Shown here: positions 8,798-50,107 of the stretch, piece by piece
Position numbering within the stretch: position 1 is the first letter of the stretch
How the letters are laid out: every line of letters begins with the position of its first letter
Assembly: GCF_003024685.1 (NCBI RefSeq)
Contig: NZ_PYLQ01000001.1
Coordinates: 124,001-188,000 of the forward strand
DNA from: Faecalibacillus intestinalis
GTDB taxonomy: Bacteria; Bacillota_I; Bacilli_A; Erysipelotrichales; Coprobacillaceae
Reading direction: 5' to 3'
Length of the DNA stretch: 64,000 nt
Translations under genes and position numbers: made by a program
The notes under the pieces: generated by a model
Databases searched by the model: none
Told to the model about the DNA's origin: nothing
Seen by the model: the letters and a program-made list of their open reading frames with translations, nothing else

Positions 8798-8815
8798 AAT
8801 ACATGCAGTTGATAC

Positions 8816-8892
8816 GGCGGACGTGGCGAAGTGGTTAACGCACCGGATTGTGGCTCCGGCATTCGTGAGTTCGATTCTCATCGTCCGCCCCA
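8816..8892 (+). tRNA. tRNA-His (GTG), copy 1
   Basis: 77 nt including the extra 5' G at position -1 opposite C73 and an encoded CCA. Anticodon stem CCGGA/TCCGG with loop TTGTGGC (anticodon GTG = His), T-arm GTGAG TTCGATT CTCAT, acceptor GCGGACG/CGTCCGC. Confidence 0.95.
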
Positions 8893-8919
8893 TATTTTAA
8901 CTGTTTGATATAGATACTT

Positions 8920-8996
8920 GGCGGACGTGGCGAAGTGGTTAACGCACCGGATTGTGGCTCCGGCATTCGTGAGTTCGATTCTCATCGTCCGCCCCA
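8920..8996 (+). tRNA. tRNA-His (GTG), copy 2
   Basis: Identical in sequence to the copy at 8816-8892, repeated 104 nt downstream with a 27-nt spacer. Cotranscribed and closed by a terminator at 9008-9032. Confidence 0.95.
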
Positions 8997-9007
8997 TTAG
9001 TGAAGAT

Positions 9008-11711: not shown

Positions 11712-14015
11712 ATGTCACATACGATCAATATGCTCGCAAAAAGAAATATTCAAAAGTATAAAAAGCATTATCTTATTGTTTTAATCGTTCTTTTAATTGT
11801 TTCTACTTTTATTTTTTCAAGTTCTTTTATTGTTGATAATCTGTATCAGATGAAAAAGAATTATCATATTTCAACCTATGGTTCTTGGTATACACGAATA
11901 GAAAATATTGATGAACAAACTCAAAAAGGAATTGAAATCTACAGCAAAGACTATTTTAAAGATATTATTAAATATGGTTATGTAGATTTTCAAGGAAAAT
12001 ATGATAATTACCAAGTAGGTCATATTGAAAAGAATATTTATTCATTGTGTCGAGTAAAAATTATTAAAGGAAGAAAAATACAAAATGATCAAGAAATTTT
12101 AATCAATCAAAAAGTTTCTAAAAAGTATAAACTTTATGATCAAATAGAAATAGAAGGAAAAAATTATACGATTGTTGGTATTTTACAAACCGCCAATAAA
12201 AACTTACCTGATATTTATACAAACTTAGAGACGTATCAAACAAAAGATTATTATTCGAATATGTCTGTTTTATCAGATAATCATTATATTCAATTTAATG
12301 ATGGAAATAACTATCAAGAAATAGAAATTCATTATGATTATAATCCTTATGGTTATGATCAAAATGAAATTCATAATCAAGTAGAAAAAGCAACCAATCA
12401 GCTCCAACAAATGTTTGAATTTATTATAATTACACTTTTTGTTTTATTCGCTTTAACTTCTACTTCCCTAAAGAAGAGAATGAAAGAAATGGCTCTTTAT
12501 CGAGGAATAGGAATGACAACGAATCAATTAATGATGATGGTCATGCAAGAAAACATGCTGATTTCTTTTCTTTCTATTTTAATAGGATTGTTAATAGGTG
12601 TATGTGTATCTTTAGGTTATCTCTATCTTCAAAGTAAAACCTATCATACATTTATTTATCAAATTTCATTTAAAGAAATATTATTTTTAGTATTGGTATT
12701 GATGAGTTGTATTTTTATAACGGTTCTCATTCCCATTTATTCAAGCTCTAAGAATGCTTTGGCAGGTACTTTTGATAGCAAAAAGTTTAATTATATTCAA
12801 GTAAGATATAAAAAATTAAAAAAACAAACACTTGCTTCCTTAAGTGCGAGAGAGTTATGGGCAAATAAAAGAATGAATATCTGTTTTTATGTATTTGTTT
12901 TAATACTTTCTTTATATGGACTTGTTTATTTCTATCAAGGACATCCCATTCAAACAAAAGATCAAAATGAACAAAGTCAGGTAGAACTTATGATGGCAAC
13001 TCAAAAAGAAGCAAATTTATTTTTAAAAGAATTTTCTCAAAATGACATTATTATTAATCATCATTATATTGATGAAGGAATAACTATGACTTATCGAGAA
13101 ATTCCTCAATCTGTTTATAAACTTTACCAACTTTATTATTATCAAAGTAATAAAGATGATTTAAAAGGAAGATTTCCTCAAAAAAGTCATGAAATTGTCG
13201 TAGGTAATCATTTTAATCATGTTATTCTTTCAAAAGAACGGTATCCAAATCTTAAAGTTGAAGCGAATCAAGTAACTTTTAAAGGGAAAAAATATCAAGT
13301 AGAAAATTCAACATCTTCTCATGGTGATCAAGGAAATTATTTAGGAGATGACAATTATGAGATTGCTCTTGATGAAGTAAAACTCAATGAAAAAGTGATA
13401 ATTGCAGGTGAAGAATATACCATTGTTGGAATCAATGAAAATGAATATTATAATGATTCAATGATTTATATGTTTGAAGATGATTTAAAACGATTCAATA
13501 CAAGTGATGAATATTATTCAGGATATCATTGGTATCCAATAAAAGATGTTATAAAAGTAGAAAAGTTCATGAAAAAACATTATAAAGCAAGAGTTTATGA
13601 AATGGTAACAAGTGATGAACTTTCAGTAAGTTTGTTTTCTACATTAAATATTCCTAAACATCTTTTAATACTTGCATTAGCTGTAGGTTTTATTTTAATG
13701 ATGTTTTTAAATTACAATCATATTGAAAATAATTATCAAGATTATTTTATGTATCATGTTATAGGTTTAAGTTATCGGGAAATTAAAATAAAACAAGTAT
13801 GGAAATCAATAAAAATGTTTTTATATACACTTATTCCTTGTGGTTTTTATGAGTTGATTTTATTAAGAGGAAGTATCGATCATTATTTCCCAATAGCGCA
13901 ATTAATACTTTTAGTAGGGATTATTTTTCTAGTTTATTTATGTGTTTATAATATTCCTTTATTAATTGTTTTAAAAGCACATCAAAATGAAGAAATAAGA
14001 AAGGAAGATGACTAA
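11712..14015 (+). CDS. ABC transporter permease, two FtsX domains
   Basis: 767 aa. One TM helix near 20-42, a large extracytoplasmic domain (about 45-235), three TM helices (about 236-346), then a second unit: TM near 391-409, extracytoplasmic domain to about 645, three TM helices (about 646-760). This 4+4 FtsX/MacB-type layout fits a mechanotransducing exporter or sensor rather than the 10-TM BceB shape. Paired with the ATPase that follows immediately. Ribosome site GAGGAGG. Likely a resistance or lipoprotein/peptide-handling transporter under the control of the upstream two-component system. Confidence 0.88.
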   Translation: MSHTINMLAKRNIQKYKKHYLIVLIVLLIVSTFIFSSSFIVDNLYQMKKNYHISTYGSWYTRIENIDEQTQKGIEIYSKDYFKDIIKYGYVDFQGKYDNYQVGHIEKNIYSLCRVKIIKGRKIQNDQEILINQKVSKKYKLYDQIEIEGKNYTIVGILQTANKNLPDIYTNLETYQTKDYYSNMSVLSDNHYIQFNDGNNYQEIEIHYDYNPYGYDQNEIHNQVEKATNQLQQMFEFIIITLFVLFALTSTSLKKRMKEMALYRGIGMTTNQLMMMVMQENMLISFLSILIGLLIGVCVSLGYLYLQSKTYHTFIYQISFKEILFLVLVLMSCIFITVLIPIYSSSKNALAGTFDSKKFNYIQVRYKKLKKQTLASLSARELWANKRMNICFYVFVLILSLYGLVYFYQGHPIQTKDQNEQSQVELMMATQKEANLFLKEFSQNDIIINHHYIDEGITMTYREIPQSVYKLYQLYYYQSNKDDLKGRFPQKSHEIVVGNHFNHVILSKERYPNLKVEANQVTFKGKKYQVENSTSSHGDQGNYLGDDNYEIALDEVKLNEKVIIAGEEYTIVGINENEYYNDSMIYMFEDDLKRFNTSDEYYSGYHWYPIKDVIKVEKFMKKHYKARVYEMVTSDELSVSLFSTLNIPKHLLILALAVGFILMMFLNYNHIENNYQDYFMYHVIGLSYREIKIKQVWKSIKMFLYTLIPCGFYELILLRGSIDHYFPIAQLILLVGIIFLVYLCVYNIPLLIVLKAHQNEEIRKEDD

Positions 14016-31476: not shown

Positions 31477-32220
31477 ATGTTAGAGAAATATGATGTTTAT
31501 TTAAGACCATTTAACTGTCAAAGAACATTGCATATTTATTTACCTAATGATTATTATCAAAGTGATGAAAGATATCCGGTTGTTTATATGTTTGATGGAC
31601 ATAATTTGTTTTTAGATAGTGATGCTACTTATGGTAAATCATGGGGCTTAGCTGAATTTTTAAATCATTATGATAAGAAATTGATTATTGTAGGGATTGA
31701 ATGTAATCATGAAGGAAATGAAAGATTAAGTGAGTATTGTCCTTATAGCTTAAATAGTTGTTATTTTGGACGTGTTCAAGGAAAAGGTATTCAAACATTA
31801 GATTGGCTTGTTTATGAATTAAAACCTATGATTGATCAAAAATATAGAACATATCCTTTTAGAGAATGTACAGCCATTGCAGGAAGTTCTATGGGTGGTT
31901 TGATGGCATTTTATGGAGTTATCAAATACAACCAATATATTTCTAAAGCTGCTTGTTTGTCACCAGCCTTTGGCTTATGTAAAAAACGTTTAGAAAGAGA
32001 TCTTCCTCAAAATTTAAATCCTGATACACGTATTTATATGTCTTTAGGAACGGAAGAATTTAAAAGACCACAACGCTTTATTAAAAATATTCAAGAGTTT
32101 AATGATTATATTGTATCTCAAGGTGCAACAAGCTATATCAATATAATTCCTGGAGGTCATCATAATGAAACTGAGTGGGAAAAACAAAATGAGTTGTATA
32201 TGAATGCGATGTGGAAATAA
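31477..32220 (+). CDS. Alpha/beta-hydrolase putative esterase
   Basis: 247 aa from the ATG at 31477 (AAAGAGGTG 6 bases upstream). VVYMFDGHNLFLD oxyanion region, nucleophile elbow AGSSMGGLMAF, SLGTEE, and a C-terminal PGGHHNETEWE with the catalytic His: the Fes/IroE/esterase-D-like putative esterase family. Substrate unknown. Lies between the M16 protease and the S66 peptidase in one direction. Its 3' end is partly repeated after the next gene (see 33321). Confidence 0.82.
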   Translation: MLEKYDVYLRPFNCQRTLHIYLPNDYYQSDERYPVVYMFDGHNLFLDSDATYGKSWGLAEFLNHYDKKLIIVGIECNHEGNERLSEYCPYSLNSCYFGRVQGKGIQTLDWLVYELKPMIDQKYRTYPFRECTAIAGSSMGGLMAFYGVIKYNQYISKAACLSPAFGLCKKRLERDLPQNLNPDTRIYMSLGTEEFKRPQRFIKNIQEFNDYIVSQGATSYINIIPGGHHNETEWEKQNELYMNAMWK

Positions 32221-32231
32221 GGAGATAAAAA

Positions 32232-33278
32232 ATGATTAAACCTCAACGTTTAAAAAAAGGAGATAAAGTAGCTATTGTAAGTTTATCGGCAGGAACTTTA
32301 GGAGAAAAATGGGCTATTCATCGTTATTATATCGCGAAAGAAAGATTAGAAAATGATTTTGGTTTAAAAGTGGTTGTTATGGAAAATACGTTGAAGGGTA
32401 TTAAATATCTTGATGAACATCCAGAAGCAAGAGCAAAAGATTTAATGGATGCTTTTAAAGATGATTCTATAAAAGCTGTTTTTAATGCGATTGGTGGAGA
32501 TGATACGATTCGTTTACTTCCATATATTGATTTTGAAGTTATAAGAAATCATCCTAAAGTATTTACAGGATATTCTGATACAACAATTAATCATTTAATG
32601 ATGTATAAAGCAGGGTTGGTTTCTTATTATGGATTAGCGGTGCTAACAACTTTATCTGAATATGTCAAAATGGATGATTATTCATTGGAAATGATGAGAA
32701 AAACATTATTCGAACCAGTACAACAATTGGAAATATACAAAGCACCTTATTACTACGATGACGATGATGAAATGATTCGATGGGATGAAAACAATATAAA
32801 TGTTTTACGACAATATCATAAAGATGAAAATGGATATGAGGTCATTCAAGGAAATGGTGTTGTTGAAGGTGAATTGTTAGGTGGCTGTTTGGATACTTTT
32901 ATAGAGGTTTTAGGAACAGAGTTATGGCCGGATAAAGAAAAATGGAAAGGTAAAATTATGTTTTTAGAAACAAGTGAAGTAGATATGTCAGAATATCAAT
33001 TAGCTTGGATATTAAGAAATTTCATGGCACAAGGTCTTTTTGATGTGATAAATGGTATTGTTGTTGGTAAACCATCACGAAGAAAAAAATATGAAATTTA
33101 TAAAAAAGTTTATCAAAGGATTATTGGGATAGAAGCGCATCATCCAGAGCTACCAATTTTATATAATGCTAATATAGGGCATGCACTTCCTATAGCTGTC
33201 ATCCCTTACGGAGTGCGTTGCCGTTTAGATTTAGATAAAAAGACATTTACACTATTAGAACCTGCATGTAATCTTTAA
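32232..33278 (+). CDS. S66-family serine peptidase (LD-carboxypeptidase / MccF-like)
   Basis: 348 aa. KGDKVAIVSLSAG N-terminus, AIGGDDTIRLLPYID, and the nucleophile motif FTGYSDTT (Ser about residue 117), later the Glu/His of the Ser-Glu-His triad in LETSEVDMSEYQ and NIGHALPIAVIPYG. MccF-like members cleave peptide nucleotides; LdcA-like ones trim murein tetrapeptides. The length and the SEVD region look nearer MccF. Cytosolic. AAGGAGAT ribosome site. Confidence 0.85.
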   Translation: MIKPQRLKKGDKVAIVSLSAGTLGEKWAIHRYYIAKERLENDFGLKVVVMENTLKGIKYLDEHPEARAKDLMDAFKDDSIKAVFNAIGGDDTIRLLPYIDFEVIRNHPKVFTGYSDTTINHLMMYKAGLVSYYGLAVLTTLSEYVKMDDYSLEMMRKTLFEPVQQLEIYKAPYYYDDDDEMIRWDENNINVLRQYHKDENGYEVIQGNGVVEGELLGGCLDTFIEVLGTELWPDKEKWKGKIMFLETSEVDMSEYQLAWILRNFMAQGLFDVINGIVVGKPSRRKKYEIYKKVYQRIIGIEAHHPELPILYNANIGHALPIAVIPYGVRCRLDLDKKTFTLLEPACNL

Positions 33279-33320
33279 AAGATAGAGAAAGTGAATCGTT
33301 TTACGATGATAAATATAAAA

Positions 33321-33355
33321 TGAATGTGATGTGGAAATAAGGAGATAAAAAATGA
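33321..33355 (+). repeat. Duplicated esterase 3' end plus ribosome site
   Basis: The ~34-bp stretch spanning the esterase 3' end and the next gene's ribosome site (starting at 32201) recurs here with one mismatch: TGAATGYGATGTGGAAATAA followed by the same AGGAGAT site and ATGA. It encodes a ghost MNVMWK-stop ahead of the methyltransferase. The rest of the 33279-33351 gap carries no gene. Confidence 0.85.
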
Positions 33356-35040: not shown

Positions 35041-35895
35041 ATGGATTGGGTAAATGCAATTGAAAAAGCAATTCAATATATTGAAAACCACTTAGTAGAA
35101 GATATAACAGTGAAAGATGTTGCAAGATATGTTCATATTTCTGAATATTATTTTCAAAAAGGATTTGCTATGTTATGTGGATTTACTATTAGTGAATATA
35201 TTCGTAAAAGAAGATTATCGCTTGCGGGTAATGAAATTGCAGGAAGTGACATAAAAATTATTGATATTGCCATAAAATATGGATATGATTCGCCAGATAG
35301 TTTTACCAAAGCTTTTACACGTTTTCATGGTGTAACACCAACAGTTGCTCGTAAGAAGCATACAACTTTGAAATCCTTTGCTCCACTGAAATTAACAATA
35401 GCTTTAGAAGGAGGATATCTTATGGATTACAAGATTGAAAGAAAAAAAGCGTTTAAAGTTATCGCAAATGAAAAAACGTTTGCTTATGAAAATGCTAAAA
35501 AAGTCATTCCTGATTTTTGGAAAGAGCATTATCAAACAGGCAAAGGAAAAGTTGTTAGAGGAGTTTATGGAATTAACATTGATAAACAAATGGGGCAAGA
35601 AAACTTTGATTATTTAATTGCAGATCCTTATCAAGAACAAGTTATTCCAGAAGGCTTTGTGTTAGAAACTATTCCTGAATTTGAATGGGCAATTTTTCCA
35701 TGTGTTGGCGCAATGCCTAAAGCCTTGCAAGATGTAAATATTAAAATATTTACAGAGTGGTTACCGGCATTAAAAGATTATGAATTTGCTGCTGGATATT
35801 GTGTAGAATATTATGATGATCCAACAAAATATCTTAAAGGTACATTGGATGAAAATTATTATTGTGAAATATGGATTCCAATTAAAAAAAGATAA
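35041..35895 (+). CDS. AraC-family regulator with GyrI-like effector domain
   Basis: 284 aa. N-terminal AraC double HTH (1-105: VKDVARYVHISEYYFQKGF and IIDIAIKYGYDSPDSFTKAFTRFHGVTP), C-terminal GyrI-like/bacterial transcription-activator effector-binding domain (about 125-284). This Rob/SoxS-BmrR style fusion senses small hydrophobic drugs or metabolites. AAAGGAG ribosome site; single-gene unit, TATAAT at 35005-35010 but no clear -35. Target genes unknown. Confidence 0.9.
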   Translation: MDWVNAIEKAIQYIENHLVEDITVKDVARYVHISEYYFQKGFAMLCGFTISEYIRKRRLSLAGNEIAGSDIKIIDIAIKYGYDSPDSFTKAFTRFHGVTPTVARKKHTTLKSFAPLKLTIALEGGYLMDYKIERKKAFKVIANEKTFAYENAKKVIPDFWKEHYQTGKGKVVRGVYGINIDKQMGQENFDYLIADPYQEQVIPEGFVLETIPEFEWAIFPCVGAMPKALQDVNIKIFTEWLPALKDYEFAAGYCVEYYDDPTKYLKGTLDENYYCEIWIPIKKR

Positions 35896-35898
35896 AAG

Positions 35899-35935
35899 AA
35901 ATCTCTAATAGAGTTATTTTCTATTAGAGATTTTT
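35899..35935. terminator. Bidirectional terminator (AraC / Nudix)
   Basis: 13-bp stem AAATCTCTAATAG (35899-35911) / reverse complement at 35921-35933, with T-runs on both strands. The Nudix stop codon lies inside it. Confidence 0.87.
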
Positions 35936-36355
35936 ATTAGATAAGATATCAATTAAAAATGGAACAACTTTTTCATTAGACATTTCATCTAAAGAAGAAA
36001 TAAGACGGTATTCACTGTGTTCTTCTGGATCTAATTGAATTACATAATCATTTGTATTTTTTAAAGTACAAATATAAACAAGACGAGTAAACATCGTATT
36101 TTTACCTTTATCAAAATTACTGTCTTCATGAATGATTTGTTTTACTTCAACATCTAAATTAACTTCTTCTTTGGCTTCTCTAATTAAAGCTTCTACAGGT
36201 GTTTCAAAGTCTTCTACAGAACCTCCAGGGATATCCCAATATTCAGGATATACATTTGGTTTTCCTCTTTTGATAATACTTCTTTTAATGATAAGGTATT
36301 TATCATTGATTTTCATTAAACCATGGACAATAAGTTTGTTTCGAAATTCTTTCAT
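35924..36355 (-). CDS. Nudix hydrolase
   Basis: 143 aa. Nudix box GGSVEDFETPVEALIREAKEEV fits G-x5-E-x7-REUxEExG with Val in place of the last Gly position region. N-terminal strand LIVHGLMKINDKYLIIKR. Hydrolyses a nucleoside diphosphate linked to another moiety; the substrate is not predictable. AGGAGG ribosome site before the ATG. Convergent with the AraC gene and divergent from the next Nudix gene. Confidence 0.87.
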   Translation of the reverse strand: MKEFRNKLIVHGLMKINDKYLIIKRSIIKRGKPNVYPEYWDIPGGSVEDFETPVEALIREAKEEVNLDVEVKQIIHEDSNFDKGKNTMFTRLVYICTLKNTNDYVIQLDPEEHSEYRLISSLDEMSNEKVVPFLIDILSNKNL

Positions 36356-36462
36356 CTGATTTTCCTCCTTATGGGTAAGTTTTATTATAAATCTGTTTTC
36401 AATAAAAATACAATGAGAAAAATATGATATAATAAAATCAATAAAGATTAGAGGAAATGTGT

Positions 36463-37086
36463 ATGGATAAAAATAAAAAATGGATTGATTATATTATTGA
36501 ATTACAAAGTTTAGCACAAGCCGGACTTACTTATGGAAAAGATGTTTATGATCAAGAACGCTATGAACGTATTCGCCAACTTTCCGCTATGATGATGGCA
36601 GATATTTCAAATAAACCAGTAGAACAAGTAGAAGGGCTTTTTTGTAATGAAGTAGGGTATCAAACACCCAAAATTGATACACGTGCTGCTATTTTTAAAG
36701 AAGATAAAATCTTACTTGTACAAGAGAAAAATGGAACATGGTCATTACCTGGTGGTTGGTGTGATGTCAATGTCTCAGTTATGGAAAATACGATAAAGGA
36801 AGTAAAAGAAGAAGCAGGACTTGATGTTGTTGTTAAAAATGTCATTGCAATTCAAGATAGAGAAAAACATAATCAACCAATCTATGCTTATAAAGTATGT
36901 AAAATATTTATGCTTTGTGAAGTAGAAGGTGGTGTTTTTAAAGAAAATAGTGAAACAATAGGTTTTGATTATTTTACAAAAGACAATCTTTCATTACTTG
37001 CTACAAAAAAGAATAATGAAGAACAAATTCAAATGTGTTTTGATGCTTATAAGGCAGGAGAAAAATGGAAAACATATTTTGATTAA
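36463..37086 (+). CDS. Nudix hydrolase with N-terminal helical domain (ADP-ribose pyrophosphatase-like)
   Basis: 207 aa from the ATG at 36463 (GAGGAA 6 bases upstream; the ATG at 36457 abuts it). An N-terminal helical region of about 65 aa (IELQSLAQAGLTYGKDVYDQERYERI) is the NUDIX_N_2 type found in ADP-ribose/X-linked nucleoside diphosphate hydrolases; the Nudix box is LPGGWCDVNVSVMENTIKEVKEEAG. Probable ADP-ribose or related hydrolase. Followed 12 bases later by the DUF2185 gene. Confidence 0.87.
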   Translation: MDKNKKWIDYIIELQSLAQAGLTYGKDVYDQERYERIRQLSAMMMADISNKPVEQVEGLFCNEVGYQTPKIDTRAAIFKEDKILLVQEKNGTWSLPGGWCDVNVSVMENTIKEVKEEAGLDVVVKNVIAIQDREKHNQPIYAYKVCKIFMLCEVEGGVFKENSETIGFDYFTKDNLSLLATKKNNEEQIQMCFDAYKAGEKWKTYFD

Positions 37087-37098
37087 GGAGGCATATTT

Positions 37099-37401
37099 AT
37101 GGGATTTTTTACGAAGAAAAAACAAACACTATCATTTCCTTTTGATGATCAACAAAATACAGCATGCATTGTATGTTGTCATATTTTAGAAGGACATCCT
37201 ATTTTATATGTAAGTCATGATGAAGATGACGGTATGTGGCAATTTTTATGTGGAAGCAATCATAATATAGAAGATGCAAGTATTGTTTCTTTATTTGAAG
37301 TTTATAACATTGATTATTCTATTTGCTTATTAAAAGACATGCCACGAGGTTATTATGCAATAAGAGAAAATGTAGAAAGTGATTGGATTGTTAAGAAATA
37401 A
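37099..37401 (+). CDS. DUF2185-like protein
   Basis: 100 aa. ACIVCCHILEGHPILYVSHDEDDGMWQFLCG matches the core of DUF2185 (conserved eDgxWqFlcG), with the usual tail ...PRGYYAIRENVESDWIVKK. Function unknown; related proteins include immunity-type proteins of polymorphic toxin loci. Good AAGGAGG ribosome site. Lies between a Nudix gene and a membrane zincin. Confidence 0.75.
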   Translation: MGFFTKKKQTLSFPFDDQQNTACIVCCHILEGHPILYVSHDEDDGMWQFLCGSNHNIEDASIVSLFEVYNIDYSICLLKDMPRGYYAIRENVESDWIVKK

Positions 37402-37421
37402 TAATGCTGGAGGTGTTATCT

Positions 37422-38000
37422 ATGACAATAAAGTTTAGAGGTTATTTAAAAAATAATAATCAGTTAAAAAGTGTTGATGAATCACGATTGGAGAAAATGG
37501 CTATTGGATGGATTGACTATCTATTTGTTTTTTTGATTATTTTATATCCTTTAACAAAAAGCTTAAAATTATTAATTTCTAAATATAATGGAAAAATTTT
37601 AAATGTATTTTTAATAGATATATTGGGTTTTATTATTGTAATTTTATTAATGATTGTCCATGAATACTTTCATGCAATAACTTTTTCTAAAAAAGAAGAT
37701 ATTTATATTTGGTTTCAGGGGTTTGGAATGATAACACATTGCACAGAAATAAAGAATGTAAAAGAGTATCTTTATACTTTATTGTTACCTAATTTATGTA
37801 TTACATTGCCATTATCGATTTTTGTAATATTTGTAAAACTATCAAATCCATTGATTTTAAAAATGATAGGATTAGTTTCAAGTATTATAATTTTAGGAGC
37901 AATTAATGATCTTGCTACTATAGTTTATATAATTAGAAATAGGAAGCAGATAGAGTATTTACAATTAAGTGGTAAATACATGTATTATAAGAAGAAATAG
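37422..38000 (+). CDS. DUF3267-type membrane zincin
   Basis: 192 aa from the ATG at 37422 (GGAGGTG 6 bases upstream). Four hydrophobic segments; HEYFH (the zinc-binding HExxH motif) lies at the end of the second and the rest of the family pattern (small integral-membrane putative zincin peptidase) fits. Substrate unknown. Next to a gene for a short exported protein broken by a frameshift. Confidence 0.75.
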   Translation: MTIKFRGYLKNNNQLKSVDESRLEKMAIGWIDYLFVFLIILYPLTKSLKLLISKYNGKILNVFLIDILGFIIVILLMIVHEYFHAITFSKKEDIYIWFQGFGMITHCTEIKNVKEYLYTLLLPNLCITLPLSIFVIFVKLSNPLILKMIGLVSSIIILGAINDLATIVYIIRNRKQIEYLQLSGKYMYYKKK

Positions 38001-38022
38001 CATATAGAGGAAAGGTAGAAAA

Positions 38023-38413
38023 ATGAAAAAAAGATATTATTTTAGTTATTTTGATTCCTATTTTGATCGTTACATCTTTAATAAAAGATTCTAATCAAAA
38101 ACCAGCTATTAAAATTAAAGATAATGAAATCATTACATCTGTACCTAATTGTAGTGAACCAACAATTAAAATAGATAAAATACGAAATATTAAATTATTG
38201 GATAATGTTGAAATTGGAAATAAACAAGTAGGTTATAAAGAAGATAAGTGCTATGCAGGTTATTTTGATACACAATTTGGAACATGTTTTATTTATATAA
38301 ATCCAAATATTCATTCATATATTTATTTTGAAACCAAGGACGACAAATGCTTGATTAATTATGAAAGTGAAGAAAAAACAAAAGAGTTGTATGAAACTAT
38401 AAAAAATATTTAA
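38023..38413 (+). pseudogene. Exported/anchored small protein gene, frameshifted in a 7-A tract
   Basis: The ATG at 38023 follows GAGGAAAGG but reads out of frame after seven A (38026-38032), stopping within 24 codons. With six A the frame would read MKKDIILVILIPILIVTS and join the open frame that continues to 38413, giving about 129 aa: a hydrophobic N-terminal signal/anchor followed by a polar domain with three or four Cys. The intact part in the track starts only at a TTG inside the hydrophobic stretch. Either a pseudogene, polymerase slippage/phase variation, or a sequencing error. Domain not recognised. Confidence 0.75.
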
Positions 38414-38436
38414 CCTTAAAGGAGAATTAAAATATT

Positions 38437-39126
38437 ATGGAAAATAAAGATGTTCAAAAAATAGCAAAAATGACAATACAATATGCAAAAGAAATTATTA
38501 AACCTGGTATGTCCCTTATTGATTTGAGAAATGATTTAGAGAAGAAAATGCTTGAGTTGGGCGCAGATTCTTTTTGGTATTGGGATGTAGGAGCATTTAT
38601 TTTTTCAGGAGATGAAACAAATGTTTCAATATCAGGTAAACATTATGTAACTGCAAATAAAACTATACAAAATAATGATATTATTACGATTGATTTATCA
38701 CCTCAAAATAATAATGTTTGGGGAGACTATGCAAGAACAATTATTATTGAAAATGGGATAGTTGTTGATTGTGTAGGAAATATTGAAAATGAAGAATGGA
38801 AAAAAGGATTACAAATGGAAGATAGACTTCATCAAGAATTATTGAAATATGTTACTGTTGAAACAACTTTTGAAGATCTTTATTTTCATATGAATCATTT
38901 GATAAAGGAATATGGATTTATAAATTTAGACTTTTTAGGAAATTTAGGACATTCTATTGTAAATAGAAGTGAAGATAGGATTTATATTGAAAAGGGAAAT
39001 AAAACAAAATTAATAGATGTAAATTATTTTACGTTTGAACCACATATAAGTGTTTTAAATTCTAAATATGGTTATAAAAAAGAAAATATTTATTATTTTG
39101 TTGAAGAAAAATTAGTTGAATTATAA
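38437..39126 (+). CDS. M24-family metallopeptidase homolog (pita-bread fold)
   Basis: 229 aa. AKEIIKPGMSLIDLRNDLEKK is the typical M24 N-helix; metal ligands appear as Asp in TIDLSPQ, Asp in WGDYART, His in LGHSI, Glu in FTFEPHI and a C-terminal Glu in YYFVEEKL. Aminopeptidase P/creatinase superfamily, catalytic domain only, so small Xaa-Pro dipeptidase or a related hydrolase. AAAGGAGAA ribosome site. A decayed copy of its 5' end is found at 42762-42842. Confidence 0.85.
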   Translation: MENKDVQKIAKMTIQYAKEIIKPGMSLIDLRNDLEKKMLELGADSFWYWDVGAFIFSGDETNVSISGKHYVTANKTIQNNDIITIDLSPQNNNVWGDYARTIIIENGIVVDCVGNIENEEWKKGLQMEDRLHQELLKYVTVETTFEDLYFHMNHLIKEYGFINLDFLGNLGHSIVNRSEDRIYIEKGNKTKLIDVNYFTFEPHISVLNSKYGYKKENIYYFVEEKLVEL

Positions 39127-39150
39127 CTTATATTTAATGGGGAGTCGTCA

Positions 39151-39726
39151 ATGAAAAAAGATTTTGAAAATTTAAAAAAAATATTTGAACAAGCAAATGA
39201 ACAACTATTAAATCTTGATATTGATTTATTTGAATCACAAGTATCTGAACAAACAATTTGTGGAGCACTGGCTATAAGATTACATGATATATTAAAAGAT
39301 ACCCAATATTCCAAGTATTATGTTGATATTGAATATAATCGCAATAGAGGTGGAAAATTTAAAAAAATGTCTAAAAGTATACAGGGTCCAGGCGAAGAAA
39401 TAATAAGAATTAAAACAGATTTAATTGTACATAGTAGAGGCGAATGTGTAGAACGAGATAATTTACTTGCACTTGAAATGAAGAAAAGTTATCGACCTAA
39501 AAAGGAGAAGGATGCAGATAGGAGCCGATTAAAATGTTTAACTAAAGATAGCTTTAATCACGAGTGGTCTTTTGATGGAACAGAATCTCCTGAACATGTT
39601 TGTCGATATGCTATAGGTATATATTATGAGATTGATTTTGATAAAAATACTATCTCAATAGAATATTATCGTAAAGGAAAGTATCATACGAAAGATAAGA
39701 AACTCATTAAAAAAGGAACAGATTAA
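39151..39726 (+). CDS. Unknown protein with PD-(D/E)XK-like core
   Basis: 191 aa. A central segment IRIKTDLIVHSRG followed by NLLALEMKKS gives Asp90 and Glu109-x-Lys111 with strand-like hydrophobics around them, the spacing of the PD-(D/E)XK nuclease fold; a helical N-terminus precedes it. No DNA-binding domain or modification partner is adjacent. Ribosome site GGGGAG. A restriction-like or repair nuclease is an inference from the motif only. Closed by a terminator. Confidence 0.55.
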   Translation: MKKDFENLKKIFEQANEQLLNLDIDLFESQVSEQTICGALAIRLHDILKDTQYSKYYVDIEYNRNRGGKFKKMSKSIQGPGEEIIRIKTDLIVHSRGECVERDNLLALEMKKSYRPKKEKDADRSRLKCLTKDSFNHEWSFDGTESPEHVCRYAIGIYYEIDFDKNTISIEYYRKGKYHTKDKKLIKKGTD

Positions 39727-39746
39727 TTAAACAAATGTTCCTTTTT
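39710..39746. terminator. Bidirectional terminator (39.7 kb)
   Basis: Stem AAAAAGGAACA (39710-39720) / TGTTCCTTTTT (39736-39746), 15-nt loop; genes converge on it. Confidence 0.82.
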
Positions 39747-39750
39747 TACT

Positions 39751-40611
39751 TTATTTCATAATGTGATATGCAAAGTTAGCAAAACCATTTTTATCATAAG
39801 AAGTAGAAATGTAGTTTACAATTTTCTTTACATCATCTACTGCGTTATTAACAGCACCACTATAATTTACTTTTTTTAACATTTCTAAATCATTTAAATG
39901 ATCTCCAATTGCATACGTATTTTCTAAATTAATATTAAAATGTTTGCATAAAATATCAATAGCATTTGCTTTTGTTACCGATAAAGAAGATATCTCGGTG
40001 TTTAGTTGACCTGAAGAAGTGATTTTGAAATCTTTGTCATATTTTTTATTTATACTTTCTATAAATTTAAAATCATGAGTAATGATTTCTAATTTAAATA
40101 AATCTTTATCTTTTGTTTTAAAGTCGTTGATAATTTGCTTAGTAAGAGGGACACTTGAAAATATAATATCATAGTAAACTTGCATACCATAAAGAGCATA
40201 ATCAATATCAGTAGTTTTAGTCATTGCTAATTGATAAAGTCTTTTTATTAATTGTTTAGATTTATGATAATAAAAGTGACATTGATCGTAAAGAATATAA
40301 TAGTAATCTAATTTATTACATTGATCGATAATATCAAAAATCTTGTTTTCTTTAATAGGCATATTTGCAAGTAAGAAACCATCTTGTAAATAGATTTGAG
40401 CACCATTTAAAGCAATAACAGGTATTTGTAGATGATATTTTTCTAATAGATTTATTTTAATATCATTATAACTACGCCCAGATGCAAAGACGACAATAAA
40501 ACCTTTATTTTGTAATTGATATAAAGCTTTTAAATTTTCTTCACTAATTTCATGTTGAGCAGTTAAAAGAGTTTTATCTAAATCAGTAAATATAATCTTT
40601 TCTTTATTCAT
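39751..40611 (-). CDS. Cof-type HAD phosphatase
   Basis: 286 aa. Motif I FTDLDKTLL (residues 8-16), motif II FASGRSYNDI, Lys in KANAIDILCK, motif IV YAIGDHLNDLEML: the HAD-IIB (Cof/YidA) pattern with a C2 cap. Sugar-phosphate or flavin/pyridoxal-phosphate phosphatase activity is typical. AAGGAGG ribosome site. Single-gene unit; the 134-bp gap on its right contains no gene. Confidence 0.9.
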   Translation of the reverse strand: MNKEKIIFTDLDKTLLTAQHEISEENLKALYQLQNKGFIVVFASGRSYNDIKINLLEKYHLQIPVIALNGAQIYLQDGFLLANMPIKENKIFDIIDQCNKLDYYYILYDQCHFYYHKSKQLIKRLYQLAMTKTTDIDYALYGMQVYYDIIFSSVPLTKQIINDFKTKDKDLFKLEIITHDFKFIESINKKYDKDFKITSSGQLNTEISSLSVTKANAIDILCKHFNINLENTYAIGDHLNDLEMLKKVNYSGAVNNAVDDVKKIVNYISTSYDKNGFANFAYHIMK

Positions 40612-40745
40612 AAAAACCTCCTTAATCGTTTGACAATGTTTAAAAATTAAGATAGGATTTTTTTAACTTTAAATTAATATATTTTCTTTAAAACATCATG
40701 TTTATAGGTGAGAGTGTAAATAAAATGTCTTAGAATTTATATGAT

Positions 40746-41954
40746 TTAAAGTTTTTCTTTTTCTAACCATTGTACTTTTTTGTTAATGATAAAGTGATCG
40801 ATAAGCCATAATGTTCCATTAAAAATAATAAGAAAACGATAAGCATTATTTAATGAAAATAATGAGCAGGTAATAAGTGAAATTGAAAGACCAATAATTC
40901 TTCCTAGGGCAATTGGAAATTCAGATGCAACAATATATTCGTATTGGTTATAATCGTTGTTTGCTATTTTGGCTAATTGGAATTTAACGGATTGAAAGAT
41001 TGTTTGATTCCAACAGTAGACAACACCAAGTAAGATATAAGTGATTAATAATATTTTAGGCGATTGAAAAATTCCTAATAAGGACATTATTCCAAAATAA
41101 ATCATAGAAGCAATTAAATGATAATTCTTTTGATTGGTTCTATTAAATTTACTAGCAATTAAACTTGAACTGAAAATACCAATACAAGCCATAATTGAAT
41201 TAAATTGACCGATAATTTGTTCGTTAGAAATAATTGTATAAGCAAAAACAGTAAATATCTGATTAAATATTGAATCTCTAATACCGTTACTAAAATTATA
41301 ATATTTATTAGCATTCCAATATTTGTTACCTTTAAGTTTTAAAACTTCTAATAATCTAATATTTTGATTTAAAGTAAGTCCTTTTATAAAAATAGACATA
41401 TAAATACCAATAATAAGTAACAAAGCGGATATAAAAAATAAAATATAATAACCTGTTAGTTTAGTATAAATGGAAATAATATAACCTGAAAGTGAAGGCA
41501 TAATAATTCCAAAAAGATAACTGAATGTTTGTTGATATGAAAAGAAGCGACCTTGTTCACTTTCTTTTACGAGTTGTCCAGTAAGTAGGTTAAACGAAAA
41601 ATAGTAAAAACCTTGACCAATTCCATTAAAGATACCTAATGGAATTAAAAATAATTGAGCTTGTTCTTTTAATGATAAAATAAGCAAATAATAAGCAATC
41701 ATTGAAAAGATGCCAGTTTTAAGAAAAGTAACAAGATTTATTTTTGATATAAATTTTGTTCCAATAATAAAAGCAATAAGCAAAGAAACATAGTTAAGAA
41801 TATTTTGAAATAAGATAATAAATATACTATTTGTTAGTCTTACTAAATAAACATTCAAAAAAACTGAGGCAATATTTGAACCAGCAAGGAATAACATTCC
41901 TACAATAAGTAAATATTTTGTTTCCTTTGTTAAAGTATTTTTAATTTTTAGCAT
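40746..41954 (-). CDS. MFS transporter (efflux-type)
   Basis: 402 aa, about 12 hydrophobic helices in two groups of six separated by a loop rich in Lys/Arg (about residues 195-210). No substrate-specific motif recognised. Its first 14 bases overlap the end of the TetR-family gene, a regulator-transporter pair typical of drug or metabolite efflux. Single promoter upstream of the TetR gene. Confidence 0.86.
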   Translation of the reverse strand: MLKIKNTLTKETKYLLIVGMLFLAGSNIASVFLNVYLVRLTNSIFIILFQNILNYVSLLIAFIIGTKFISKINLVTFLKTGIFSMIAYYLLILSLKEQAQLFLIPLGIFNGIGQGFYYFSFNLLTGQLVKESEQGRFFSYQQTFSYLFGIIMPSLSGYIISIYTKLTGYYILFFISALLLIIGIYMSIFIKGLTLNQNIRLLEVLKLKGNKYWNANKYYNFSNGIRDSIFNQIFTVFAYTIISNEQIIGQFNSIMACIGIFSSSLIASKFNRTNQKNYHLIASMIYFGIMSLLGIFQSPKILLITYILLGVVYCWNQTIFQSVKFQLAKIANNDYNQYEYIVASEFPIALGRIIGLSISLITCSLFSLNNAYRFLIIFNGTLWLIDHFIINKKVQWLEKEKL

Positions 41955-42498
41955 TTCTAAAATTTTTAATTGCTATTTTTAATAATTCTGAAACTTCTTC
42001 TTGCGAAAGTGAAATGCTATCAACAAGAACATAAGTTGCAATACCATGCGTATAAAATCGAATATTTTGAAAAAGTTGGCAAGCTTCATCAAATGAAATT
42101 TGATACTGTTTTTCAATCTTTTTAATAATATTTTGATTGTACGATGATTGAATTATTTGTGATAGCGTTCTTTGACCACCAATATCTGAAATATAAACAG
42201 CTTTGAACAGATTTTTTTCTTTTCTTGCAAATTCGATATAGGCATAGCTAACGCGATACAATTCATCATTTTCATCAACATAAATATCTGTAAATTCTCG
42301 ATAGTATTTATATATTTCTTCAATAAGTTCTTCTTTTAATTCATCCATATTTTTGTAAACCCTAAAAATAGGATTTGTAGAACAATTCATTTCTTTTGCA
42401 ATACTTCTTGCATTAACTTCCTCAAAACCACTTTTTCTTATTATTTCAAGAGATGAAGTTAAAATATCTTGCTTATTAATTTTTGATTTTGGTGGCAT
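41941..42498 (-). CDS. TetR-family repressor
   Basis: 185 aa. N-terminal HTH: KINKQDILTSSLEIIRKSGFEEVNARSIAKEMNCSTNPIFRVYKNMDEL, the TetR fold; helical ligand-binding C-terminus. Encoded upstream of and overlapping the MFS gene. A 42-bp palindrome lies across its promoter, so it very probably represses its own operon. AAAGGAG ribosome site. Confidence 0.9.
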   Translation of the reverse strand: MPPKSKINKQDILTSSLEIIRKSGFEEVNARSIAKEMNCSTNPIFRVYKNMDELKEELIEEIYKYYREFTDIYVDENDELYRVSYAYIEFARKEKNLFKAVYISDIGGQRTLSQIIQSSYNQNIIKKIEKQYQISFDEACQLFQNIRFYTHGIATYVLVDSISLSQEEVSELLKIAIKNFRNAKN

Positions 42499-42513
42499 AA
42501 CAAAACTCCTTTC

Positions 42514-42575
42514 TTATAAAATAACATTTGTTACGTAACATATGTTATTTTATAATTAAAAATTAAATTTGTCAA
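42514..42575 (-). promoter_or_regulatory. tetR-MFS promoter with a 42-bp palindromic operator
   Basis: Minus-strand -35 TTGACA (complement of 42570-42575), 17-bp spacer, -10 TAAAAT (complement of 42547-42552). The palindrome runs 42514-42555 around the centre GTTAC/GTAAC at 42534/42535, with one mismatched pair (42528/42541). It covers the -10 box and the start point. Confidence 0.9.
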
Positions 42576-42645
42576 TGGAACACATCATAGAAGATATTTT
42601 AATTCCTCTTTTTTATTATTTGTGTAATATTATAATTCTATTTAG

Positions 42646-42740
42646 TTAAAGATGTTGATTTATACGGAAATATTAGCTTTTACAGGAGTAGGAATATCAA
42701 AATAAAGTAATATGCCGATATCTATAGAAAAGCAGAAGTA
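42646..42740 (+). pseudogene. Decayed copy of the sirtuin gene 5' end
   Basis: About 90 bp aligns without gaps to the start of the sirtuin gene at 43741: upstream TTAGTTAA and TTGATTTATA, then AATATTAGCTTTTACAGGAG and GGAATATCAAAA. The ATG has become ACG and a CAA codon has become TAA; similarity fades after the codons for NIPTFME. Upstream, 42556-42645 holds nothing I can identify. Confidence 0.88.
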
Positions 42741-42761
42741 GGGTTTAATGATAAAAAAGAG

Positions 42762-42842
42762 ATATTACAGAAAATAGGAATGTTCAAAAAAAGAAAAATG
42801 ACAATTCGATGTATAAAAGGAATTATTAAATTTGGTTGTTGA
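42762..42842 (+). pseudogene. Decayed copy of the M24 homolog 5' end
   Basis: About 78 bp aligns to 38431-38510, the start of the M24 gene: ATATTA, GAAAATA, TGTTCAAAAAA, AAAAATGACAAT and AATTATTAAA are shared, with one 2-base deletion and mostly transitions. The start ATG is now CAG. Fused about 20 bp after the sirtuin fragment. Confidence 0.82.
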
Positions 42843-42847
42843 TATAT

Positions 42848-42874
42848 AAAAAGTTTCCCATTATGAGAAACTTT
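42848..42874 (-). terminator. Terminator of the 181-aa gene
   Basis: Stem AAAGTTTC (42850-42857) / GAAACTTT (42867-42874), with T-run on the minus strand left of 42850. Confidence 0.75.
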
Positions 42875-42885
42875 GATTTTAAAAC

Positions 42886-43431
42886 TTAATGTTTTTTAAT
42901 TTTCTTTTTAGCTAACCTTACCATGCTATCATCTAATGTAGTACGTGGGTTTTCTAAATTATAAGTTTTTGCCAAATCTTTGTAATGTTTATCCATGTAA
43001 TCTTTTATTTCATTAGTTGATTTTGTTTGGAATAGGGTAATTAAGTTTACATCATCTTCTATTTTAAAAATATCATTTAATTTCAAAATAAATTTAGATG
43101 TATTTTCTTCGATGTCTGAACTTTCAAAAAAGTAATTTCCTGTGTTTGTATAGATGTTTAAATCTACAAAATAATTAAAGTAAATACTAAATTTTCCAGA
43201 ATTACGGTGTGACATAAAACCTTTGAAACCATCTTTTAAAAGACCTACAGATGGATTGTAGATTCTATTAACAGGTAAAATTTTGATATTATTAATACTA
43301 CTAAACGGAATGGTAATATCTACGTTGGATTCATTTTTAATTACTAAAGCATCTTCGTTTAAAATAAGTTGTTGTACATCATCAGAAATACTTGTTACTG
43401 AAAATTGTGCTTTTATTCTTTTTTCTTCCAT
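42886..43431 (-). CDS. Hypothetical protein, 181 aa
   Basis: From the ATG at 43431 (MEEKRIKAQF), chosen because AAAAAGGAGG lies 8 bases upstream; the longer frame to 43512 has no ribosome site. Strand-rich N-terminal part (ALVIKNESNVDITIPFSSINNI resembles the first strands of a PH-like fold, a weak impression), helical C-terminus ending KKKIKKH. No TM segment or signal. Not recognised. Isolated between decayed DNA and the sirtuin gene; the 43513-43740 gap holds only a TATAAT box near 43708. Confidence 0.65.
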   Translation of the reverse strand: MEEKRIKAQFSVTSISDDVQQLILNEDALVIKNESNVDITIPFSSINNIKILPVNRIYNPSVGLLKDGFKGFMSHRNSGKFSIYFNYFVDLNIYTNTGNYFFESSDIEENTSKFILKLNDIFKIEDDVNLITLFQTKSTNEIKDYMDKHYKDLAKTYNLENPRTTLDDSMVRLAKKKIKKH

Positions 43432-43740
43432 TGCAAAAACCTCCTTTTTAAAAAATAAATTTATTACATCAAAGAACTTTAAATTATGAATAGTCATTTT
43501 ATCTTTATTCAATTATACCATATAACATGTAGAAATATTGTGATTTAATCAGCTTTTTTATTTGTTGAAATGTTTTTAATGGGTTATAATAAGCACTAAT
43601 ATCATCTATAACAGTATATATCGATTCTTTAAGTTAGATACATTCAAATATATAGAGAGATTGGTTTTAATCATTGCACTTTATAGATAACCAATAGAAA
43701 TATGTGATATAATTTCATGTAGTTAAGGGAGTTGATTTAT

Positions 43741-44295
43741 ATGAAAATATTAGCTTTTACAGGAGCAGGAATATCAAAACAAAGTAATATTCCAACATTT
43801 ATGGAAAGACCAGATGTAAGGGAAAAACTATTTAGAAGTTATGCCAATACACATCATGAAGAATATAATGAGGTTATTAAACAGCTTAAAGCCAATATGA
43901 ACGGTGCTAAACCGAATGATGCTCATATTGCTTTAGCTGAGTATCATATACCAATTATTACCATGAATATTGATGGATTGCATAAATTAGCTGGAAGTGA
44001 TGCTTTAGAATTACATGGTGGTTTACCAGAAGATGATGAAATGGATATTGCGTATTCTTTATATAATAAACCGGTACTTTATGGTGATCCAGCACCAAAT
44101 TATCAAAAGGCTTATGAAATGGTTTATAAATTACAACCAGGAGATATCTTTTTGGTAGTAGGATGTTCATTTCATACAGGAATATCTGTTGATTTAAGAG
44201 AAGTTGCAAAAGCTAGAGGAGCAAGAATTATCGAAATACAGGAAGATGCTGCTCATAATGTAAGAAAAGTATTAGAAGAATTAAAGAAAGGATGA
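43741..44295 (+). CDS. Minimal sirtuin (Sir2 family) lacking zinc cysteines
   Basis: 184 aa from the ATG at 43741 with GGGAG upstream (a TTG at 43732 is less likely). Sirtuin motifs: AFTGAGIS at residues 5-12, SNIPTF, TMNIDGLH (75-81; usual TQNIDGLH), catalytic His92 in LHGG, and VVGCSFHTG near 140. Canonical sirtuins have about 240 aa and a Cys4 zinc ribbon after the catalytic His; here the chain goes straight to LYNKPVLYGDP and the only Cys is residue 142. It could be an NAD-consuming deacylase, an ADP-ribosyl-handling enzyme or an NADase; which one is unknown. Confidence 0.85.
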   Translation: MKILAFTGAGISKQSNIPTFMERPDVREKLFRSYANTHHEEYNEVIKQLKANMNGAKPNDAHIALAEYHIPIITMNIDGLHKLAGSDALELHGGLPEDDEMDIAYSLYNKPVLYGDPAPNYQKAYEMVYKLQPGDIFLVVGCSFHTGISVDLREVAKARGARIIEIQEDAAHNVRKVLEELKKG

Positions 44296-46709: not shown

Positions 46710-47165
46710 ATGAACTCAATTTTAATTAAACCACATCATTTTATTGATATTATTAAATTATATGGATCTGGGATAGATAGATTTGTTCCTGATGAAAAAA
46801 TGGGACATGATTTTTATAAGGTTGCTAATGAAATTATTGATAATCCATCTGTTGATTTAAAATTAACAATTGATGGAGATGATATTTGTAAACCTTGTAA
46901 AAAGTATCACGAACAATGTATAGATCCATTAACACATATACAAGGATATACGAGTAAAGATGTTTATAATAAAACTTTAGATAAAAGAATTATAAAATTA
47001 TATAACTTAAATGATGAATATTATACGGCAAAACAATTATGCTCTATAATTCAAAATAATAAAGAATATATCTTTGAAGTCTGGGATGAAGAAGATAATG
47101 AGGTAACACAAAAAAGATATGAATTATTTTTACAAGGGGCTCATAAATTTTTAGATAACATTTAA
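46710..47165 (+). CDS. DUF1284-like cysteine-motif protein
   Basis: 151 aa. Begins ILIKPHHFIDIIKLYGSGID (DUF1284 has a similar RxHH-LxC start) and carries DDICKPCKKYHEQCID, the C-x2-C-x6-C motif of that family, probably a metal or Fe-S site. Function unknown. AAAGGAAGA ribosome site. Followed 16 bases later by another Cys-motif protein, probably cotranscribed. Confidence 0.7.
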   Translation: MNSILIKPHHFIDIIKLYGSGIDRFVPDEKMGHDFYKVANEIIDNPSVDLKLTIDGDDICKPCKKYHEQCIDPLTHIQGYTSKDVYNKTLDKRIIKLYNLNDEYYTAKQLCSIIQNNKEYIFEVWDEEDNEVTQKRYELFLQGAHKFLDNI

Positions 47166-47181
47166 AGAAGAGGTGATAGAA

Positions 47182-48081
47182 TTGTCAAAAAAGGAAAAAG
47201 CGTATTTTCATTTACCAGGATTATTTGAATTTTATGAATTATATAAAGTCTTTTTACCATTATTCTATCATCATCGTGAATATTTTTATGATTGGTGTGA
47301 AATAGGTTCTATTTATGGAAGTCCTGAAGATTGCTTATGGGGTGGAGGACGTCTTGGTGAAGGAAATCAAAATCCTTATGAAGTTCTTTCACTTATGGAT
47401 CAATATCATATTTCTTCGCGACTTACTTTCAGTAATTCATTACTTCAAGAAAAGCATCTTCAAGATAAAAGATGTAATGATCTTTGTGCTTTATTTGAAA
47501 AAAGTGAGGTTCAAAGTGGGATTATCATTCATTCTGATTTGTTACTAGAATATTTAAAAAAACAATATCCACGTTTTTATTTTGTTTCTTCAACAACGAA
47601 AGTTCTTACAAAATTTGAACAATTAGTAGATGAATTAAAGAGAGATGACTTTTTATATGTTGTTCCTGATTTTCGTTTAAATAAAGCTCAACAATTAGAA
47701 AGTCTTTTACAAAAAGATAAGGATAAAGTTGAATTTTTATGTAATGAGTGTTGTTTTATAGGCTGCCTTGAACGAAAGAAATGTTATGAAACGGTTAGCC
47801 GTCAAAATCTAGGAGAAGATTGTTTAGATCATGTATGCAAAGCTATGAATTCTCATGAAGGGTATCGTTTTTCTAAAGCTATGCAAAATTCGAGTTTTAT
47901 CAGTGTTGAAGATATTCAAAATAATTATCTACCAAAAGGCTTTTCTCAATTTAAAATAGAAGGTAGAAGTTTAGGGAGTGCTTTAGTGTTAGAATTTTTA
48001 CTTTATTATATGGTAAAACCTGAATATCAAATACATGTAAGAGAAGCTATTTATTTAGATAATATGTTAGATTTGTTTTAA
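47182..48081 (+). CDS. Unknown protein with U32-like cysteine cluster
   Basis: 299 aa from TTG at 47182; GAGGTGAT lies directly upstream and a GTG at 47173 would fall inside it. A segment FLCNECCFIGCLERKKCYE (residues about 190-208) has a Cys cluster like the N-x2-C-x3-C of peptidase-U32/TIM-barrel proteins; SSTTKVLTKFEQLVDEL and VVPDFRLNK resemble a barrel strand-loop series. Not assignable to a reaction. Downstream of the DUF1284-like gene. Confidence 0.6.
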   Translation: MSKKEKAYFHLPGLFEFYELYKVFLPLFYHHREYFYDWCEIGSIYGSPEDCLWGGGRLGEGNQNPYEVLSLMDQYHISSRLTFSNSLLQEKHLQDKRCNDLCALFEKSEVQSGIIIHSDLLLEYLKKQYPRFYFVSSTTKVLTKFEQLVDELKRDDFLYVVPDFRLNKAQQLESLLQKDKDKVEFLCNECCFIGCLERKKCYETVSRQNLGEDCLDHVCKAMNSHEGYRFSKAMQNSSFISVEDIQNNYLPKGFSQFKIEGRSLGSALVLEFLLYYMVKPEYQIHVREAIYLDNMLDLF

Positions 48082-48844: not shown

Positions 48845-50107
48845 ATGAAAACTGTATTAAAAAATGGAAATGTTTTTTACCAAAATAAAATTCAAAAATT
48901 AGATGTAGAAATTGATGGTGAAACAATTAGTCAAATAGGTCATGATTTAGATGGTGAGAATATAATTGATTGTACAGATCTTTTAGTAACACCAGGTTTT
49001 GTTGATCTTCATGTTCATTTACGTGAACCAGGATTTGAACATAAAGGAACTATTAAAACAGAAACTTTATCTGCTAAATATGGAGGATATACGCATATTG
49101 TAGCGATGGCTAATACAAATCCATGTATGGATGATAAAGAAACTATTGAAGATTTTATTCAAAGAGTTCAAAAAGATAGCTCTATTCACACATATACTTA
49201 TAGTGCTATTACGAAAGATTTAAAAGGACAAGAGCTTGTTGATTTTAAAGAAAATAATGCTTTTGATATTGTACAGGGATTTTCTGATGATGGAAAAGGT
49301 GTTCAAAGTAAAGAAATGATGGCAAAAGCCATGAAAGAAGCAAAAGCAATCAATAGTATTATTGTTGCTCATTGTGAAGATGAAGGAGAACTTGAAAAAG
49401 GAGCATGTATTAACTTAGGACGTGTTTCTAAAGAAAATGGTCTTGTAGGAATCAATAATGCTTCAGAATATAATCATGCTTTACGTGATTTACAATTATC
49501 TAAAGAAATTGGTAATCGTTATCATATTTGTCATATTTCTACTAAAGAAACTGTGGCAGGATTAAGAGAATATCGAAAACAAGGACTTCCTGTTTCAGGA
49601 GAAGCTTGTCCACATCATTTGATTTTAACAGATGAAAATATTAAAAACTTAAATCCAAATTATAAAATGAATCCACCACTTCGAAGTAAAGAAGATTTAG
49701 ATGCTTTAATTGAAGGGCTTAAAGATGGAACAGTGACATGTATCTCAACAGATCATGCACCTCATAGTGATGAAGAAAAATTAAAACCAATTGATCAAGC
49801 ACCATTTGGTATTATAGGTAATCAACATGCTTTTAGTCTTATTTATACATATTTAGTTAAGAAGAATTTGTTAGATTTAGAAACTGTTTTAAAATGTATG
49901 ACAGTCAATCCAAGTCAAGTAATTGGATTGGATCATGATATGGCTGTTGGTAAAAAAGCTAATATTGCTATCATTGATTTAAATGAAGAATATACGATTA
50001 CGAGAGATAATATTTATTCAAAAGCAAAAAACACACCATTTTTAGATACAAAATGTTTTGGTTTAGTGAAGTATCATATTTTAGATGGAAAAATAGAAAA
50101 ATTATAG
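48845..50107 (+). CDS. pyrC: Dihydroorotase
   Basis: 420 aa, class I type. Zinc ligands: DLHVHLREPG (around 58-67), His in VAHCEDEGE (around 176), His in YHICHISTKET (around 229), Asp in CISTDHAPHSDEEK (around 302). Reversibly closes carbamoyl-aspartate to dihydroorotate in pyrimidine synthesis. First gene of pyrC-pyrK-pyrD; GGGAG ribosome site. Amidohydrolase start MKTVLKNG. Confidence 0.95.
   Translation: MKTVLKNGNVFYQNKIQKLDVEIDGETISQIGHDLDGENIIDCTDLLVTPGFVDLHVHLREPGFEHKGTIKTETLSAKYGGYTHIVAMANTNPCMDDKETIEDFIQRVQKDSSIHTYTYSAITKDLKGQELVDFKENNAFDIVQGFSDDGKGVQSKEMMAKAMKEAKAINSIIVAHCEDEGELEKGACINLGRVSKENGLVGINNASEYNHALRDLQLSKEIGNRYHICHISTKETVAGLREYRKQGLPVSGEACPHHLILTDENIKNLNPNYKMNPPLRSKEDLDALIEGLKDGTVTCISTDHAPHSDEEKLKPIDQAPFGIIGNQHAFSLIYTYLVKKNLLDLETVLKCMTVNPSQVIGLDHDMAVGKKANIAIIDLNEEYTITRDNIYSKAKNTPFLDTKCFGLVKYHILDGKIEKL

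What the first reader, a model, noticed from the sequence alone, without database searches (positions are those of the whole stretch)
42646..42842. Two decayed gene starts fused head to tail, copied from genes 1 kb and 4 kb away
Within 200 bp, a ~90-bp copy of the sirtuin gene start (43741) with ATG mutated to ACG and a CAA turned into TAA is followed by a ~78-bp copy of the M24 homolog start (38437). Both copies are diverged mostly by transitions and carry no intact frame. They record an earlier arrangement in which a sirtuin and an M24 gene were neighbours, followed by duplication and decay, and suggest the 36-48 kb region turns over genes.
Basis: seen in the sequence. Interest (0 to 1): 0.72.

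Follow-up and report, generated by a model that had tools for sequence, protein, structure and literature searches.

The report
Fused decayed sirtuin and M24 starts
A 200-bp stretch holds the broken, long-decayed first codons of a sirtuin gene joined to those of a peptidase-like gene; it is a real scar of past gene shuffling beside a conserved sirtuin gene, but of an ordinary kind.

Summary
42631-42743 is an 83% copy of the sirtuin (SIR2) start, including about 33 bp upstream of its ATG. 42762-42836 is an 81% copy of the M24 start. Neither match is reached by any of 2,000 dinucleotide shuffles or by other segments of the window. Both copies have lost their start codons (ACG, ACA) and carry a stop or frameshifts. 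Nine of the 13 SIR2-part changes hit bases invariant in 15 other SIR2 starts, so the copy is a relic.

Congeners supply the context. In G004 gene G is followed directly by SIR2; the window has 5.3 kb extra there (M24, an ORF, HAD, MFS, TetR, relic, another ORF). G003 differs again. G004 also keeps a displaced 33-nt SIR2 3' end before the next gene, so both flanks of SIR2 vary.

'SIR2 and M24 were once neighbours' is possible but not required. A duplication or insertion joint (SIR2 codon ~27 fused to the M24 segment's left edge), then deletion, explains the head-to-tail fusion at least as well. In another genus (G057) M24 lies 6.4 kb upstream of SIR2, so the two genes are linked elsewhere too. 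Ordinary gene remnants in a variable locus; low interest.

The parts
42589..42630 (+). Degraded upstream region of the SIR2 relic; resembles the SIR2 upstream region of congener G004, not that of the window's intact SIR2
   Evidence: score reached by 5 of 2000 shuffles vs G004, by 106 of 2000 vs G003, by 795 of 2000 vs own; G004 (L044) 12087-12236 aligns to 42589-42743 at 78%
42631..42743 (+). SIR2 relic: ~33 bp upstream plus codons 1 to ~27; ATG to ACG at 42664, CAA to TAA at codon 14
42762..42836 (+). M24 relic: start region and ~24 codons; ATG to ACA, two 1-nt deletions
43741..44295 (+). Intact SIR2 (Pfam PF02146), parent of the first half; 99% aa identical to G004
38437..39126 (+). Intact M24-family gene (PF00557), parent of the second half; found in 3 of the first 40 genomes compared, one of them a weak match, and later in G057
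38409..43700 (.). 5.3 kb present here and absent from G004, between gene G (bPH-like) and SIR2; contains the relic near its right end
42514..42555 (.). 42-bp palindrome next to the TetR-type gene (probable operator); left neighbour of the relic
42886..43512 (-). ORF between the relic and intact SIR2 (likely ATG at 43434); no Pfam match; 73% DNA identity to a stretch of G019

Best explanation
The stretch is a non-functional scar of a duplication or insertion joint in a gene-turnover locus around a conserved sirtuin gene. At some time DNA whose left edge was the M24 segment became joined to codon ~27 of a SIR2 copy, either by tandem duplication of the M24-to-SIR2-start segment or by recombination of incoming DNA at the SIR2 5' end. 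Selection kept the complete SIR2 on the right; the truncated SIR2 on the left and most of the second M24 were deleted or decayed. Shown: the two copies, their decay, and the insertion context. Inferred: which joint-forming event took place and in what order.
For: Two significant copies, same strand, 18 bp apart. SIR2-part changes fall on codon positions 2/6/5 and 9 of 13 hit family-invariant bases, i.e. no coding constraint. G004 has the uninterrupted G-SIR2 order and G003 a third arrangement. Relic upstream resembles the G004 SIR2 upstream while the intact SIR2 keeps only ~40 bp of it, as expected if the relic marks the original left side of the locus. The two halves are about equally diverged (13 substitutions in 72 nt each). 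G004 shows a comparable scar at the SIR2 3' end, 30/33 nt, score 51 vs shuffle maximum 35.
Against: No trace of the rest of a duplicated unit between 42837 and 43741, so tandem duplication needs a later deletion plus arrival of the 42886-43512 ORF. The insertion version needs M24 to have arrived twice. SIR2-part divergence (18%) exceeds the 4-fold-site divergence of SIR2 between the window genome and G004 (6.6%), so the event looks older than the shared SIR2 ancestry although G004 lacks the relic; loss or allele replacement in G004 must be assumed.
Confidence: 0.6

Rival explanations
1. One reading: duplicate SIR2 and M24 genes were adjacent, and internal deletion fused their starts before both decayed.
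For: M24 and SIR2 lie in the same orientation within 16 kb in G057 as well.
Against: G057 order is M24 then SIR2, 6.4 kb apart; no intact SIR2-M24 pair was found in the family genomes searched nor a SIR2 near M24 in 80 named M24 loci. Needs a deletion that ends just upstream of the M24 start.
Confidence: 0.25
2. The relic is a divergent SIR2 start imported from another genus with the island, not a copy of the local gene.
For: Island genes (M24, HAD, MFS, TetR) have relatives near SIR2 in G057; divergence is larger than between congeners.
Against: The relic is closest to this genus's SIR2 (13 differences in 72 nt; 18-27 to G008, G018, G023, G010, G007, G011) and differs at bases invariant in the family.
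Confidence: 0.1
3. The stretch is a functional short RNA or regulatory element.
For: Transitions dominate (23 of 26).
Against: No Rfam match; not present as a separate element in G003 or G004; transition share is not far above that of coding differences in the genus (67-70%, Fisher p 0.03-0.06).
Confidence: 0.03

Closest known systems
Bacterial gene remnants (truncated pseudogenes) in horizontal-transfer hotspots (hotspots with rapid gene turnover: PMC5635113 abstract)
   Same: Fragments of gene ends left beside a conserved gene whose flanking cargo differs between species
   Different: Starts of two different genes fused head to tail within 200 bp, which records one joint
Tandem-duplication joint remaining after loss of one copy (general knowledge)
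   Same: End of one unit fused to the start of the next, same strand
   Different: The remainder of the second unit is gone, so the duplication is inferred

Membership tests
Pseudogene / gene remnant | Significant similarity to an intact gene | tested here: met
Pseudogene / gene remnant | Open frame disrupted | tested here: met
   Start codons lost, in-frame TAA, frameshifts
Pseudogene / gene remnant | Changes not constrained by coding | tested here: met
   Codon positions 2/6/5; 9 of 13 SIR2-part changes at family-invariant bases
Tandem-duplication joint | Remains of the rest of the second unit | tested here: not met
   No similarity of 42837-43741 to 38508-42590 beyond shuffles; so filed only as a possible route, not as an established member
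Tandem-duplication joint | Related strain with both units intact | not testable with these tools
   One genome per species held; congeners G003 and G004 lack M24
Mobile element insertion | Integrase/transposase gene in the 5.3-kb segment | tested here: not met
   None among the ORFs scanned; no plasmid match

The most novel reading that the evidence does not exclude
The two ends of this family's small SIR2 gene act as preferred entry points for foreign segments through short homology, each entry leaving a copied gene end behind (5' scar here, 3' scar in G004), so SIR2 would be a natural recombination anchor without an integrase.
Probability: 0.12. Interest if true: 0.4.

Novelty: new member of a known kind. 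Interest (0 to 1): 0.17.

Why it matters
It is a readable record of how cargo comes and goes beside a strongly conserved gene, and it warns against annotating these fragments as genes. It does not point to a new system.

Tried and rejected
Chance similarity: rejected by shuffles and other window segments. Import from another genus: disfavoured by relic distances and family-invariant sites (in one search the rows for G019, G016, G021, G012 and G014 were taken from the wrong strand and are ignored). Structured RNA: no Rfam match. Plasmid-borne island: no plasmid match. A phage search with the SIR2 protein gave only distant sirtuins below 60% identity. Two exact patterns, one from the G003/G004 SIR2 upstream region and one from the relic, found nothing in viral contigs. 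An unusual mutational process behind the transition bias: only weakly supported. M24-SIR2 pairing across 80 distant M24 loci: not found. A displaced SIR2 3' end before gene Q in the window itself: not significant (175 of 2000 shuffles as good), unlike in G004.

Full report
Observation. BLASTN of 42500-42900 against the window finds 42631-42743 matching 43708-43821 (83%, E 2e-28) and 42762-42836 matching 38432-38508 (81%, E 1e-12), both on the same strand; a search of the whole genome finds the same places and no further copy. Scores of 129 and 71 stand against maxima of 35 and 37 in 2,000 dinucleotide shuffles each and of 27 and 31 in 487 other window segments. The parents are a SIR2-family gene and an M24-family gene by Pfam. 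The copied SIR2 start reads ACG, its codon 14 is TAA, and its 13 changes in 72 nt fall on codon positions 2/6/5. Nine of these 13 sites are invariant in 15 other SIR2 starts from the fetched relatives, so the changes arose in the copy. The M24 copy reads ACA for ATG and has two 1-nt deletions. No ORF longer than 26 aa touches the stretch.

Surroundings. Gene letters are mine: E = 37099-37401, F = 37404-38000, G = 38051-38413, Q = 46710-47165, R = 47173-48081. In congener G004 the order is E-F-G-SIR2-(small ORF)-Q, with 35879-38408 98% identical to the window. The window has 5.29 kb (38409-43700) between G and SIR2 that G004 lacks, with M24, a 191-aa ORF, HAD, MFS, a TetR-type gene, the relic and a 208-aa ORF. 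In G003 gene E is followed directly by SIR2. The relic's upstream sequence resembles the G004 SIR2 upstream (5 of 2,000 shuffles as good; weaker for G003), while the intact SIR2 of the window resembles it only to about -40. G004 carries a displaced copy of the SIR2 3' end, 30 of 33 nt, just before gene Q, and in G019 SIR2 is followed directly by the homologue of R. Both flanks of SIR2 are therefore variable.

Linkage elsewhere. In G057, another genus of the family, one 16-kb contig holds TetR, MFS, HAD, M24 and SIR2 homologues, all on one strand, with M24 6.4 kb upstream of SIR2. M24 homologues were detected in only G000, G019 and G057 in the family, so the shared neighbourhood is unlikely to be chance, but none of 80 named M24 loci elsewhere has a similar SIR2 nearby.

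Mechanism. The relic reads SIR2 start, then M24 start from close to its left edge (a weak similarity may run back to the stop codon of gene G). That is what a tandem-duplication joint, or an insertion of M24-bearing DNA at SIR2 codon ~27, would leave. Each needs a further step: loss of the rest of the second unit, or a second arrival of M24. Adjacent intact genes followed by an internal deletion remain possible.

Age. The relic's 18% change exceeds the 6.6% 4-fold-site divergence of SIR2 between the window genome and G004. Nearby genes range from 0 to 27% at such sites, which points to recombination among these species. The relic is thus probably older than the shared SIR2 allele, and its absence in G004 reflects loss or replacement. 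This step is inferred.

Transitions. 23 of 26 substitutions are transitions, against 67-70% in coding differences and 48% in noncoding differences between the window and G004/G003. The excess over coding is modest and no special cause is needed.

Verdict.

Noticed in passing
L044 (G004) 13061-13093: Displaced 33-nt copy of the SIR2 3' end just before gene Q, after an inserted small ORF; a 3' counterpart of the window's 5' relic.
   Followed up: yes
window 36457-38000 vs L044: Genes at 36457-38000 have no 4-fold-site differences to G004 while the dihydroorotase-like gene at 48845 has 27%, suggesting recent exchange of this stretch between species.
   Followed up: no
L158 (G057 contig C63) 686-15643: SIR2, M24, HAD, MFS and TetR homologues on one 16-kb contig in another genus, in different order and orientation.
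   Followed up: partly
window 8811-8997: 85-bp direct repeat, 97.6% identical, copies about 20 bp apart.
   Followed up: no
window 32200-32235 and 33320-33355: 36-bp direct repeat, 97% identical.
   Followed up: no
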